From Armatimonadota bacterium (lineage in GTDB: Bacteria; Armatimonadota; Fimbriimonadia; Fimbriimonadales; ATM1), in contig JAJPJR010000013.1 in NCBI GenBank assembly GCA_021324165.1, positions 1-37,328 of the forward strand: a stretch of DNA of 37,328 nt, written 5' to 3'. Position 1 is the first letter of the stretch. Every line of letters begins with the position of its first letter. The notes under the pieces were generated by a model. The model ran no database searches and had not been told where the DNA came from. It saw only the letters and a program-made list of their open reading frames with translations. The translations under genes were made by a program, and so were the position numbers. Positions 25,635-35,282 of the stretch are shown piece after piece.

Positions 25635-25656
25635 CTCCAGATTACGCTTGCCGGAT

Positions 25657-31015: not shown

Positions 31016-32797
31016 TTACCAACTGCCGCCGCCGCCCCCGCCGAAACCTCCGCCGGAGAATCCGCCGCCTCCGCTGAAGCCGGAAGAGCCGCCGCTCGCA
31101 CCCGATGATCGCGGAGGCACAGCCGCAGATGCGAGCGAAGACGTTACGCCGTTCAGCGAATTGGAGAACATCATATAGGTGAACGGATAGTTGGGCGGGC
31201 CGACGAACCATTCGGGCGGCTTCTGCAGATAGTCTTTGAACGCCTCGCACCACACATCGCCGAGGCCGAATGCGATCGCGTGCGGCAGATACGACTCGAA
31301 CAGCATCATGTCGGGATGTTTCTTTTCCATCCATTTGAGTTCTTGGCCGCGTGCGCGGCGGATGAATTCGCGGAACCCTTCCACCAGCGCGCGGGCTTTG
31401 GCGCCGGCGGCAGTGCGTTTGGGCATCGCGTTTCCAAATATCGCGACGATCACTGCCGAGATGATTCCTCCTACGATTGCGGGCAGAGGGTTTCCGACAG
31501 GATCGAGTTTTCCAGCGAAGATCGCGAGAACCGCGACGACAACGAGTCCGCCGACTGTCCACGCTGCTCGGACGGCTTGGGGCGACGCGTGATAGTAGCC
31601 CCTTTGCACCAGCTGCGCATACACTGCGTCTTTGTATTGTTGAATGTGCGGGCCGAGTTCGGTGCGCAAATCGGATTCATCGTGAACCTCTTTTTTCTTT
31701 AGTCGCGTGTAGATGGAGAGTTCGATTCCTTGCAGATCGCCTTCCGGTTTTTTGTCCGTCATGATGAGCGAAGTTTCGGAATGCTTGATGAAATGCCCGG
31801 TTTCTTGGACTGATATTTTTAGATAGCCTTTTACGGCAAGCGCTACGATTGCGGCGACGATGTCTCGCTGATCAACGCGCTCATCAATCATCGCTCCGGC
31901 TTCAGAACCGGTGAGATTGTCGGGCGGATCGTATTGCACGACCATCGGCCCGCCGTAAGGATCGCGTCCAAACCGGTACCAGAGCAGACCCATCAGAACT
32001 AAGATCGGCAGCGGGAGCAGGAAACCGAGGTTCGACTTGAGAAACCTGATGAGTGCGACGCTGAACGGGGGCTTATGAATTAGGTTTGCGGGGACGTTGA
32101 GCACGACGGTAACGCCTTCTCCGGGCATCAACGGTTTGGTGATCGTTCCTTGAGCGTGATTCGAACTGAGGGAAAGAACCGCATGGGCGTTTTTGGCGCT
32201 CACGTTTTTTGAGCCGCCATAAACGGTGTCGCTGGAGGATAAGCCGTAAGCGCCGGTGAACACGCGCATTCTGATTCGGTTTTCGGGCGCGTTGGGGAAG
32301 GTGATGTCGAAGGAAGGGCGCTGGATGACATCTTCGAATTCGGTGCCGATGACGTTCCAATACAGTTCGGCATACGGCTCCCATTCGCTGGGTGAATCGA
32401 ACCAGTTGATCGCTCCTTGGATTGTATAGCGCAGAACGTAGGTGGTGGGTGTGTCGGCTTGAATTAGGGTGTCGGGGTCTCCGATTCGGATTTTGACGGA
32501 ACCACCCTGCCATGAGAGCCGGGTTTGATAAGGCCTGCCGTATTCGTTGGTAACGGATTGGAGTTCGAAGAACAGATTCCGCGTTGTGCCTTTGCCGTTG
32601 TCATAGCGCAAGGGGATGGTGCGATAGATGCCGTGCTTGGGAATCGAGAACGTTGCGATGATCGTTTCGGTGATGTTCAGATCGCCGGATGCACCGACCT
32701 CGATGCCCGTGTGAAAGGAGTTGTATACCGTGTCTTGCGCGCGAAGCGCGGTTCCTGCAATGATGAGCAGACCCGCGGAAAGAATGCGGACGTTCAT
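31016..32797 (-). CDS. DUF2207-type membrane protein with Gly-rich tail
   Basis: 593 residues. Signal peptide MNVRILSAGLLIIAGTALRA, then an N-terminal extracytoplasmic beta-domain (about 21-260: INITETIIATFSIPKHGIYRTIP-like strands are typical of DUF2207). Hydrophobic helices follow at about 271-290 (LGFLLPLPILVLMGLLW) and in the middle of the C-terminal half (TVGGLVVVAVLAIFAG plus AIVGGIISAVIVAIFG). The end is low complexity, FSGGGGFSGGGFGGGGGGSW. DUF2207 proteins are often encoded beside lemA, as here, where the two genes overlap by ATGA. Their function is not established. A role in envelope homeostasis or surface display is possible. Confidence 0.88.
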   Translation of the reverse strand: MNVRILSAGLLIIAGTALRAQDTVYNSFHTGIEVGASGDLNITETIIATFSIPKHGIYRTIPLRYDNGKGTTRNLFFELQSVTNEYGRPYQTRLSWQGGSVKIRIGDPDTLIQADTPTTYVLRYTIQGAINWFDSPSEWEPYAELYWNVIGTEFEDVIQRPSFDITFPNAPENRIRMRVFTGAYGLSSSDTVYGGSKNVSAKNAHAVLSLSSNHAQGTITKPLMPGEGVTVVLNVPANLIHKPPFSVALIRFLKSNLGFLLPLPILVLMGLLWYRFGRDPYGGPMVVQYDPPDNLTGSEAGAMIDERVDQRDIVAAIVALAVKGYLKISVQETGHFIKHSETSLIMTDKKPEGDLQGIELSIYTRLKKKEVHDESDLRTELGPHIQQYKDAVYAQLVQRGYYHASPQAVRAAWTVGGLVVVAVLAIFAGKLDPVGNPLPAIVGGIISAVIVAIFGNAMPKRTAAGAKARALVEGFREFIRRARGQELKWMEKKHPDMMLFESYLPHAIAFGLGDVWCEAFKDYLQKPPEWFVGPPNYPFTYMMFSNSLNGVTSSLASAAVPPRSSGASGGSSGFSGGGGFSGGGFGGGGGGSW

Positions 32798-33342
32798 GCC
32801 ATTTTCACTGAAGGCAGTTCCCTTCCAGTGGGATCAACCGAAAAGAACTCTTCGTGGCGGAATCCGGTTGCGGTGCCGATGAGACCCAACGGGAAAGTTT
32901 CGATCATGGTGTTCAGATCGCGCACTGCCGCGTTGTAATACTGGCGCGCGCTGGCGATTTTGTTTTCGGTGTCTTTGAGTTCGTCTTGAAGTTTGATGAA
33001 ATTGGCGCTGGCTTTGAGTTCTGGATACTCTTCCGCGATCGCGAGAATCTGATTTACACGCGAAGAAAGCTGCTCTTCGGCGACGGCGCGGGAGTTTGCG
33101 CCAAGCGCGCCTTGTGCGTGAGTGCGGGCTTTTGTTACGGCTTCGAGCGTTTCACGTTCGTATCCAGAATAACCTTTGACTGTTTCGACAAGGTTCGGGA
33201 TCAGCGCTCCCCGACGCTCGAGCATCACCTCGACGTCCGACCAGGCGTTTCTCACCACGTTGCGCATTCGCGCGAAGCGGTTGAACCCCCAAACAACGTA
33301 AATGAGGATGCCCGCGAGAACGAGAAGCGCGACGATCATCAT
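32794..33342 (-). CDS. lemA: LemA family membrane protein
   Basis: 182 residues from ATG 33342 (or the adjacent ATG 33339, better spaced from AAAAGG); the frame runs back to a TTG at 33387 without a ribosome site. One N-terminal transmembrane helix (MMIVALLVLAGILIYVVWGF) is followed by the LemA coiled-coil helical bundle: FARMRNVVRNAWSDVEVMLERR, GALIPNLVETVKGYSGYE, LSSRVNQILAIAEEYPELKA and YYNAAVRDLNTMIETFP. The family is widespread and its role is unclear; it is thought to be an inner-membrane protein with an external helical domain. Its stop overlaps the DUF2207 start (ATGA), so the two are translated together. Confidence 0.95.
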   Translation of the reverse strand: MMIVALLVLAGILIYVVWGFNRFARMRNVVRNAWSDVEVMLERRGALIPNLVETVKGYSGYERETLEAVTKARTHAQGALGANSRAVAEEQLSSRVNQILAIAEEYPELKASANFIKLQDELKDTENKIASARQYYNAAVRDLNTMIETFPLGLIGTATGFRHEEFFSVDPTGRELPSVKMA

Positions 33343-33388
33343 GCCTTTTGGAATTCTGACGAACGGCCGGCTGCGAAAGGTGTGCAAG

Positions 33389-33841
33389 TCATCTTTTGAA
33401 TGTAAGGCAGTCGGGAATCACAAACGGGTTGCGTGCGCTGTAGGTTGCACCCGTGTAGCCGCGGAGCTGTTTTGTGAGGTTCAGCCACAGTTCCACCCAG
33501 GCCGGGTCGCTGCATGTGTCGCAGCAGGAGATCTGCACGAAATCCATCTGCGGCGCGCCGTTTTGTGCACGTGCGTCGGAGAGTTCGAGAAGGGTTTGCT
33601 TGTCGAACCGCAGACCGCGGCCAAGCCTGACGGCTCCGGGCTCGCCGTGACCGTAGAAGATGGCGGCATCGGAAACCGCGAGCGCTTCGACTGCCTCGCG
33701 GGGCGAAGGCTGTGCGATGGTTCGGATGCCATATTCGCTGCGATAGCGCACGGTGTTGATGAGATGGAACAGGTGCCACCAGACGCGAATCGCACCGAGC
33801 CAGCCGGTTGTGTCGCCGCGAATCAGAAGAAGCGTCTTCAC
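33389..33841 (-). CDS. Small protein with a caspase-like His-Cys pattern
   Basis: 150 residues from GTG 33841 (MKTLLLIRGD). I do not recognise a named family. AAIFYGHGEPGAV (His65) and MDFVQISCCDTC (Cys106 or Cys107) have the order and hydrophobic-strand context of the His-Cys dyad in caspase-fold peptidases (clan CD, as in CHAT and C14 domains). It would be a minimal version, and no signal peptide is seen, so it acts in the cytoplasm if real. The GTG is one base past the stop of the DUF6263-like gene (TGATGTG), and lemA begins 46 bp downstream. The fold call is inference; it may be a non-catalytic relative. Confidence 0.6.
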   Translation of the reverse strand: MKTLLLIRGDTTGWLGAIRVWWHLFHLINTVRYRSEYGIRTIAQPSPREAVEALAVSDAAIFYGHGEPGAVRLGRGLRFDKQTLLELSDARAQNGAPQMDFVQISCCDTCSDPAWVELWLNLTKQLRGYTGATYSARNPFVIPDCLTFKR

Positions 33842-33842
33842 A

Positions 33843-34562
33843 TCACAAGCGCGTCATCGTGGTGCTGACGTTGAACGACGCTCCGCCTTGCTGGCCCATT
33901 TTCATCGTGTTGGTGAACGCGCCTTTTTCGGGAAGGCCGTCACTGGCTCGAATCCAGATGGTTCCCGAGCCGGTCACGGCGACCGCGCCGGAACCCGACA
34001 TGACCAGGCTGATCTTGTAGCACGACTGTCCGCGGACGTTTTCGATTCCCAACAGTTTGTTGGTAACGGTCATTTTCATCTGGCCCATTTGGGACGGCTG
34101 GTCAACGGTGCTTTTCCACGTCTGGCCGATTTTGATCGGGCCGGGAGGATAGGACGTCGGATTGTTGAAACCGCTGGACTGCTGGCCGCTGATGGATACG
34201 ATTTTTCCTTGGCCGTCCATCACCACGGTGGCTCTTTGGCTGAGCGCTGCATCAATCTGGGGTTTGAAAACTTTGGGATCAACGCCGGGGACGTTCATGT
34301 TCATCTTTTCGATGCTGGACTGGATGGTGAATCGGTTCGGTTTGACGTCGGTGCATTTTTGCGCAACCACCATATCGGCGGTAACAGTCATCGGCTTGCT
34401 GCCTGCTCGACCCGGGACGACGGTTTTGATATTGACGCCGTGACGAACGACCTGGCCCCGATTCATTTTGAAGCGGATGTTGTACGCTTTTTGCAGGTCG
34501 TTGGCTGTTGTGTTGGCTGGGCTGAAAAACGAGAAGAAGAAACTCAGGATGAGCAAAATCAC
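33843..34562 (-). CDS. Exported DUF6263-like protein
   Basis: 239 residues from GTG 34562, which has a strong GGAGGT seven bases upstream. The signal is very short and uncharged (VILLILSFFFSFFSPA). The mature part is beta-rich with MTVTADMVV, TIQSSIEKMNM, IGQTWKSTVD, GTIWIRASDGLPEKGAF, as in the uncharacterised secreted families with paired 'TW' and 'G..w.d..tG' strands. It may bind lipid or act in the outer envelope, but no role is known. It is first in the packed cluster with the caspase-like, lemA and DUF2207 genes. A TATAGT-like -10 lies about 25 bases upstream. Confidence 0.7.
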   Translation of the reverse strand: MILLILSFFFSFFSPANTTANDLQKAYNIRFKMNRGQVVRHGVNIKTVVPGRAGSKPMTVTADMVVAQKCTDVKPNRFTIQSSIEKMNMNVPGVDPKVFKPQIDAALSQRATVVMDGQGKIVSISGQQSSGFNNPTSYPPGPIKIGQTWKSTVDQPSQMGQMKMTVTNKLLGIENVRGQSCYKISLVMSGSGAVAVTGSGTIWIRASDGLPEKGAFTNTMKMGQQGGASFNVSTTMTRL

Positions 34563-34604
34563 GTCGGCACCTCCGCGGACTGTGTATGACTATATCACAA
34601 CCGG

Positions 34605-35282
34605 CTAATATCGGGGGCCGCTCGGCGCTTCGGTTGGGGCTTCCGGCCACCAGGTAACTCGCGGGTACCAGGTGTCTTCGAACCTGCGCATTTTGGAGTG
34701 GCCGTCAATGTACAGGTAGTTGTTCAGACCTTCGTACCGAAAAATGGCGGCCTGCTGGGACGCTTTTTCGTAAGGGATATGGTCGGGATCGGGCGGCCAG
34801 GTGCCTTCCTGCCAATGCCACCATTCGATGAAATCGTGCTGAAACTCCTGCTTCCGCTCGGTAAGGTAGATGGTGTCGGCTTGATCAACGATCATGGATT
34901 CCGGGCAGGGGTAGTCGAACCAGGAGTTGTCGGCAAACGAGCAGGGACGGAGATGGGGATCGGTGTTGTCGGCATGCACGCGAAGGATGGACCGGTTGTT
35001 GTCGGCATAGGGGAGGAGTTTTTCGTACCATTCGACGGTTCCATCGGCGTTGATGTCTTGGGGGTCTCCCTTGGCTGCCCATTGGGGGTTGGGAAAGTAG
35101 CCGTCGTAGTCGGTTCGGTAGATGGTCGCGCTGAGGCCGAGCTGCCTGACGTTGGAAGCGGCGGAATAGGCGTACATTCGGTTGCGAACCTTCACAAACA
35201 GCGGGAACATTACGGCCATCAGCACGGCGATGATCGCGGTGCTTGAGAGCAGTTCGACGAGTGAAAACCCTCTTTGGCGCAT
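34605..35282 (-). CDS. Pseudopilin-like protein (second in window)
   Basis: 225 residues. The prepilin motif is G|FSLVELLSSTAIIAVLMAVMFP with Glu at +5 of the mature protein, cut by prepilin peptidase. The soluble part has SNVRQLGLSATIYRTDYDGYFP and ends YLYIDGHSKMRRF, the closing pattern shared with DUF1559-type pseudopilins. Sequence beyond the helix differs strongly from the copy at 4695, so they are not recent duplicates. ATG 35282 follows AGGGG. It diverges from the S41 peptidase across 98 bp. No assembly ATPase or secretin is in the window. Confidence 0.88.
   Translation of the reverse strand: MRQRGFSLVELLSSTAIIAVLMAVMFPLFVKVRNRMYAYSAASNVRQLGLSATIYRTDYDGYFPNPQWAAKGDPQDINADGTVEWYEKLLPYADNNRSILRVHADNTDPHLRPCSFADNSWFDYPCPESMIVDQADTIYLTERKQEFQHDFIEWWHWQEGTWPPDPDHIPYEKASQQAAIFRYEGLNNYLYIDGHSKMRRFEDTWYPRVTWWPEAPTEAPSGPRY

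What the first reader, a model, noticed from the sequence alone, without database searches (positions are those of the whole stretch)
31016..34562. Packed four-gene unit: DUF6263-like, caspase-like mini-protein, LemA, DUF2207
The genes are spaced 1 bp, 46 bp and -4 bp apart on one strand. LemA with DUF2207 is a known pair of unknown role. Insertion of a 150-residue protein with a His-Cys pattern (GHG and ISCC) like a minimal caspase/CHAT fold, plus an exported beta-rich protein, makes an unusual set. It could be an envelope stress or proteolysis module in which a cytoplasmic peptidase is controlled from the membrane. This is the window's best candidate for an undescribed functional unit.
Basis: partly seen in the sequence, partly recalled or inferred. 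Interest (0 to 1): 0.6.

Follow-up and report, generated by a model that had tools for sequence, protein, structure and literature searches.

The report
Stray caspase-like gene beside lemA
The four packed genes are real and the small one is very probably a caspase-like protease domain, but the cluster exists only in this genome: the protease gene is a lone relative of the toxin-like tips of large RHS surface proteins that landed next to an ordinary, older lemA-DUF2207 pair.

Summary
The four genes exist at the stated coordinates and spacings. Its best match is the CHAT peptidase of a SAVED-CHAT filament (Z 12.9, 2.6 A over 142 residues), followed by the Tce1 effector, caspases, legumains and separases. 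His65 and Cys107, placed after strands 3 and 4 as in clan CD, are invariant in 22 of 22 relatives. No protease assay exists. The 'functional unit' does not hold: lemA-DUF2207 is adjacent in 7 relatives without the 150-residue gene. Other stand-alone copies sit elsewhere, behind alr, a hisA-like ORF, rsmG or a 307-aa gene, or beside glcF. The DUF6263-like gene goes with the neighbouring prepilin gene. Unexpectedly, the same domain is the C-terminal tip of RHS/YD-repeat proteins in 12 Fimbriimonadales genomes, each followed by a small gene for a membrane-anchored or lipoprotein-like product, a candidate immunity protein. The stand-alone copies lack such a partner; in five of five places outside one genus they start within -4 to +2 bp of an unrelated stop codon. 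Best reading: a lone cytoplasmic copy of an RHS-tip caspase-like peptidase, a lineage-restricted member of a known kind, beside lemA by chance.

The parts
33389..33841 (-). 150-aa stand-alone caspase-like (clan CD fold) protein; predicted dyad His65/Cys107
33644..33652 (-). GHG motif, residues 64-66, with invariant His65 after strand 3
   Evidence: sub-threshold separase match at the same motif (E 0.083)
33521..33523 (-). codon of invariant Cys107 (second Cys of ISCC) after strand 4
33843..34562 (-). exported DUF6263-like protein with a signal-peptide-like N-terminus; stop codon 1 bp before the 150-aa start; its homologue also lies next to the prepilin gene in G003
   Evidence: low-confidence beta-rich model
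34605..35282 (-). prepilin-like protein, neighbour of the DUF6263-like gene here and in G003
32794..33387 (-). LemA family protein; likely start ATG at 33342
31016..32797 (-). DUF2207 membrane protein with Gly-rich tail, 4-bp overlap with lemA

Best explanation
The cluster is a chance juxtaposition in this genome of three things: the prepilin/DUF6263-like pair, the lemA-DUF2207 pair, and one extra gene between them. The extra gene encodes a single-domain, signal-less protein with a complete caspase/CHAT fold and a conserved His-Cys dyad, so it is most likely a cytoplasmic cysteine endopeptidase. It belongs to a Fimbriimonadales-centred family whose other members are the C-terminal tips of RHS/YD-repeat proteins, which by position act as toxin or release-peptidase domains. 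The stand-alone copies are best read as RHS-tip cassettes living apart from the RHS protein and translated by coupling to whichever operon gene lies upstream. Shown: gene positions, homology, predicted fold, dyad conservation, RHS fusion in relatives, non-conservation of the neighbourhood. Inferred: proteolytic activity, cytoplasmic location, translational coupling, the direction of the move (tip to lone gene), and any toxin or regulatory role.
For: Fold: pLDDT 93.1, pTM 0.88; 18 PDB matches at E<=0.001, all SAVED-CHAT or caspases; Z 12.9 to SAVED-CHAT, 10.9 to Tce1. Dyad invariant in 9 stand-alone and 13 fused members. RHS fusion: the stand-alone profile finds the fused copies at E-values from 2e-19; the eight fused proteins scanned carry TIGR03696 Rhs_assc_core above its cut-off. 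Non-conserved neighbourhood: of eight genomes holding both a 150-aa relative and DUF2207, only this one has them adjacent. Separate homes: alr, rsmG, glcF/folE2, hisA-like ORF. Stop-start coupling in 5 of 5 places against 31% of co-directional pairs. Zhang et al. 2012 (PMC3482391) describe caspase-like domains as C-terminal toxin domains of polymorphic toxins, and standalone toxin cassettes.
Against: No biochemical proof of protease activity, and a conserved fold and dyad can serve a non-peptidase role. The stand-alone copies have no recognisable immunity partner, which is odd for an active toxin cassette. Branch support for stand-alone copies arising from RHS tips is weak, so the reverse direction is open. 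The G001 and G007 copies sit on contigs of 3-4 kb, so their wider neighbourhoods are unseen.
Confidence: 0.6

Rival explanations
1. The four genes form a real envelope-stress or proteolysis module in which the caspase-like peptidase is controlled by LemA/DUF2207 and the exported protein.
For: Tight same-strand packing here; LemA and DUF2207 are membrane proteins with a conserved adjacency.
Against: The combination is private to this genome; lemA-DUF2207 lacks the peptidase gene in 7 relatives and the peptidase gene lacks lemA elsewhere. Tight packing is common in these genomes: 31% of co-directional pairs in the sampled loci are as tight.
Confidence: 0.05
2. The stand-alone protein is a domesticated housekeeping or regulatory protease, no longer tied to RHS systems, kept for a cytoplasmic function.
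For: Stable place between glcF and folE2 in three genomes of one genus; dyad kept over long divergence; no immunity gene beside it.
Against: Patchy: 21 of 291 genomes in the phylum hold any member, stand-alone or fused; location changes between genera.
Confidence: 0.27
3. It is a pseudo-enzyme or inhibitory decoy that protects against RHS caspase-like tips from neighbours.
For: Same domain as RHS tips in the same order.
Against: The dyad is invariant in all stand-alone copies, unlike a typical decoy.
Confidence: 0.06

Closest known systems
Tox-Caspase domains at the C-terminus of polymorphic toxins (Zhang et al. 2012, PMC3482391)
   Same: Caspase-like fold with His and Cys; relatives are the C-terminal-most domain behind an RHS core; standalone cassettes are described for polymorphic toxins in general.
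   Different: The window gene has no RHS or export domain and no immunity gene; the candidate partners of the fused relatives are membrane-anchored and were not tested as Imm36.
CHAT peptidase of the SAVED-CHAT filament (PDB 8tl0)
   Same: Best fold match, Z 12.9, 2.6 A over 142 of 150 residues.
   Different: 12% identity; no SAVED sensor, no fused partner.
Tce1 T6SS effector C-terminal domain (PDB 9qpe; PMC13323088)
   Same: Caspase-like His-Cys fold used as a delivered effector; Z 10.9.
   Different: 12% identity; not part of a T6SS here; Tce1 is itself only a putative protease.
DUF6345 (PF19872)
   Same: Same GH...C pattern; weak profile-profile match (E 2e-4, probability 45%).
   Different: Below Pfam's cut-off; DUF6345 proteins seen here are about 260 aa, often with an apparent signal peptide.
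LemA-DUF2207 gene pair
   Same: Adjacency here and in 7 relatives; the pair is also noted in PMC12631010.
   Different: Nothing unusual in this genome except the extra gene upstream.

Membership tests
Caspase-like superfamily (peptidase clan CD) | Caspase/CHAT alpha-beta fold | tested here: met
   pLDDT 93 model; Foldseek E 1e-4 and Z 12.9
Caspase-like superfamily (peptidase clan CD) | Catalytic His after strand 3 and Cys after strand 4, conserved | tested here: met
   H65 after E59-63 and C107 after E101-105; 22/22 invariant
Caspase-like superfamily (peptidase clan CD) | Dyad geometry and cysteine endopeptidase activity | not testable with these tools
   model coordinates are not readable here; needs a structure and an assay
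DUF6345 (PF19872) | Pfam gathering score 26.9 bits | tested here: not met
   17.6 bits; profile-profile E 2e-4 but probability 45%
Polymorphic-toxin Tox-Caspase tip | C-terminal domain behind an RHS or other trafficking region | tested here: not met
   window protein is a lone 150-aa domain; met in 12 RHS relatives, 8 of which were scanned and carry TIGR03696 above cut-off
Polymorphic-toxin Tox-Caspase tip | Immunity gene directly downstream | tested here: not met
   window gene is followed by lemA; RHS relatives are followed by small membrane-anchored genes in 12/12
LemA family (PF04011) | Pfam gathering score | tested here: met
   168.7 bits against 26.2
DUF2207 (PF09972 and PF20990) | Pfam gathering scores of both domains | tested here: met
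   66.5 and 112.7 bits
DUF6263 (PF19777) | Pfam gathering score 26.7 bits | tested here: not met
   21.9 bits; homologues of the window protein in 89 of 101 genomes
Conserved four-gene module | Co-occurrence of the genes in other genomes | tested here: not met

The most novel reading that the evidence does not exclude
The stand-alone caspase-like genes are a mobile or hitch-hiking class of promoterless RHS-tip protease cassettes that repeatedly settle directly behind the stop codon of unrelated operon genes and act in the cytoplasm as a suicide or regulatory protease without an immunity partner.
Probability: 0.15. Interest if true: 0.6.

Novelty: new member of a known kind. Interest (0 to 1): 0.33.

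Why it matters
It adds a compact 150-residue caspase-like family, without an above-threshold Pfam, NCBIfam, PADLOC or PHROG assignment, in Fimbriimonadales, seen both as an RHS tip and as a lone gene. That gives a small system for asking how a toxin-tip peptidase becomes a cellular gene. The RHS-fused relatives come with candidate membrane-anchored immunity partners, including lipoprotein-like ones, which Zhang et al. 2012 found exceptional. For the lemA-DUF2207 question it matters little.

Tried and rejected
Defence-system membership: no PADLOC match for the 150-aa protein. Phage or plasmid origin: no tblastn match in the phage and plasmid collections, no relative in viral contigs, no PHROGs match for the window protein. 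Relatives outside Armatimonadota: a strict one-pattern scan of GTDB species genomes gave six loci, all stand-alone copies already seen in the whole-genome search; this does not exclude distant relatives. Solved homologues by sequence: none for the single protein; the profile gives separase at E 0.083, aligned at its GHG motif, not significant. Foreign base composition: GC3 0.715 lies within the range of neighbours, 0.62-0.75. Fold of the DUF6263-like protein: single-sequence model too poor to use (pLDDT 49). Shared immunity family among the RHS neighbours: only one homologous pair among the immediate downstream genes (30%, E 8e-10). Membrane anchoring as specific to caspase tips: about half of the other RHS tips that could be read in the same genomes also have a hydrophobic downstream product, so the contrast is modest. 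Own-genome paralogues: none. Literature on DUF6345: no paper in the held library.

Full report
What is there. On the minus strand, 34562-31016, lie a DUF6263-like exported protein, a 150-aa protein (GTG start), a LemA protein and a DUF2207 protein, with gaps of 1 bp, 46 bp (from the LemA ATG) and a 4-bp overlap. LemA and DUF2207 are secure by Pfam; DUF6263 and, for the 150-aa protein, DUF6345 are only sub-cut-off matches. The window is contig 10 of a 2.3-Mb genome; titles of contigs that carry relatives name Fimbriimonadales and Armatimonadetes.

Is the unit conserved? No. In seven other genomes lemA and DUF2207 are adjacent without the 150-aa gene (loci L036, L108-L113). Of eight genomes that hold both a relative of the 150-aa protein and DUF2207, only the window has them together. 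The DUF6263-like gene has homologues in 89 of 101 genomes, mostly ones without the 150-aa gene, and in G003 it lies next to the same prepilin gene as here (L109). The surrounding genes (ispH, an ilvC-like gene, lemA, DUF2207, the genes at 25648, 26711 and 28273) recur near one another in the family but in different orders, so the 150-aa gene lies at a junction between two older pairs.

What is the 150-aa protein? Nine stand-alone copies (window, G001, G004, G007, G017, G041, G033, G166, G167) and thirteen fused copies were aligned; Gly64, His65 and Cys107 are the same in all 22. The model is confident (pLDDT 93) and has the clan CD order: His65 directly after strand 3, Cys107 directly after strand 4. 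Foldseek's 18 hits at E<=0.001 are SAVED-CHAT and caspase chains; VIA-align 2 gives Z 12.9 to SAVED-CHAT, 10.9 to the Tce1 effector domain, and 9.3-10.4 to caspases, legumains, separases and the C11 peptidase iotapain. The sequence profile's best PDB hit, not significant, is separase at its GHG motif. The fold claim is therefore supported; enzymatic activity is not tested.

Where else does it occur? The same domain forms the C-terminus of RHS/YD-repeat proteins in twelve other genomes of the order; the eight scanned carry the RHS-associated core above cut-off. A thirteenth fused copy (L167, G247) is in another family of the phylum and is not shown to be RHS. Directly downstream of all twelve RHS copies lies a gene of 100-236 codons whose product begins with a membrane segment or lipobox-like signal. 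These are candidate immunity proteins. About half of the other RHS tips read in the same genomes also have such a neighbour, so this is suggestive only. Zhang et al. 2012 (PMC3482391) already describe caspase-like domains as both releasing peptidases and C-terminal toxins in polymorphic toxins, and call lipoprotein immunity exceptional. The phylogeny puts the stand-alone copies in two groups, one of them (G033, G166, G167) among RHS tips, with weak support at the deep forks, so more than one move between RHS tip and lone gene is possible.

Placement of the stand-alone copies. Five different places have the gene starting within -4 to +2 bp of the stop of an unrelated co-directional gene: DUF6263-like (window), alr (L096), a hisA-like ORF (L095, GTGA overlap), rsmG (L097) and a 307-aa gene (L098/L099). 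In the sampled loci 31% of co-directional pairs are that tight, so five of five would arise with probability about 0.003 if independent; the test was made after seeing the pattern and rests on rough gene calls. The G033/G166/G167 copies differ: they lie next to glcF, with folE2 on the other side where the contig shows it.

How it most likely works. A signal-less, single-domain cysteine peptidase made in the cytoplasm, translated by stop-start coupling from the gene upstream. Its substrate and trigger are unknown. Being next to lemA is most likely not part of its function. Whether it is a parked toxin cassette or a domesticated protease is open.

Verdict. Observation correct; fold prediction supported; module interpretation not supported; lineage-restricted new member of a known kind.

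Noticed in passing
L101-L107, L162-L166 (RHS-tip loci): All twelve RHS proteins with a caspase-like tip are followed within about 70 bp by a small gene whose product begins with a membrane segment or lipobox-like signal; candidate membrane-anchored immunity proteins, mostly unrelated to each other.
   Followed up: partly
L095, L096, L097, L098/L099 and window 33841: Stand-alone copies start -4 to +2 bp from the stop codon of five unrelated upstream genes (hisA-like, alr, rsmG, 307-aa gene, DUF6263-like).
   Followed up: partly
window 33302-33868 + and 33753-34589 +: Antisense ORFs of 188 and 278 aa overlap the 150-aa and DUF6263-like genes and are longer than the 150-aa ORF; homologues support the minus strand, so these look like shadow ORFs.
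   Followed up: yes
genome G000, contigs C33, C42, C45, C57: The window's genome carries seven RHS-core matches, none with a caspase-like tip.
   Followed up: partly
89 of 101 genomes: The DUF6263-like exported family is widespread and often multi-copy in the order, with four matches in the window's genome.
   Followed up: no
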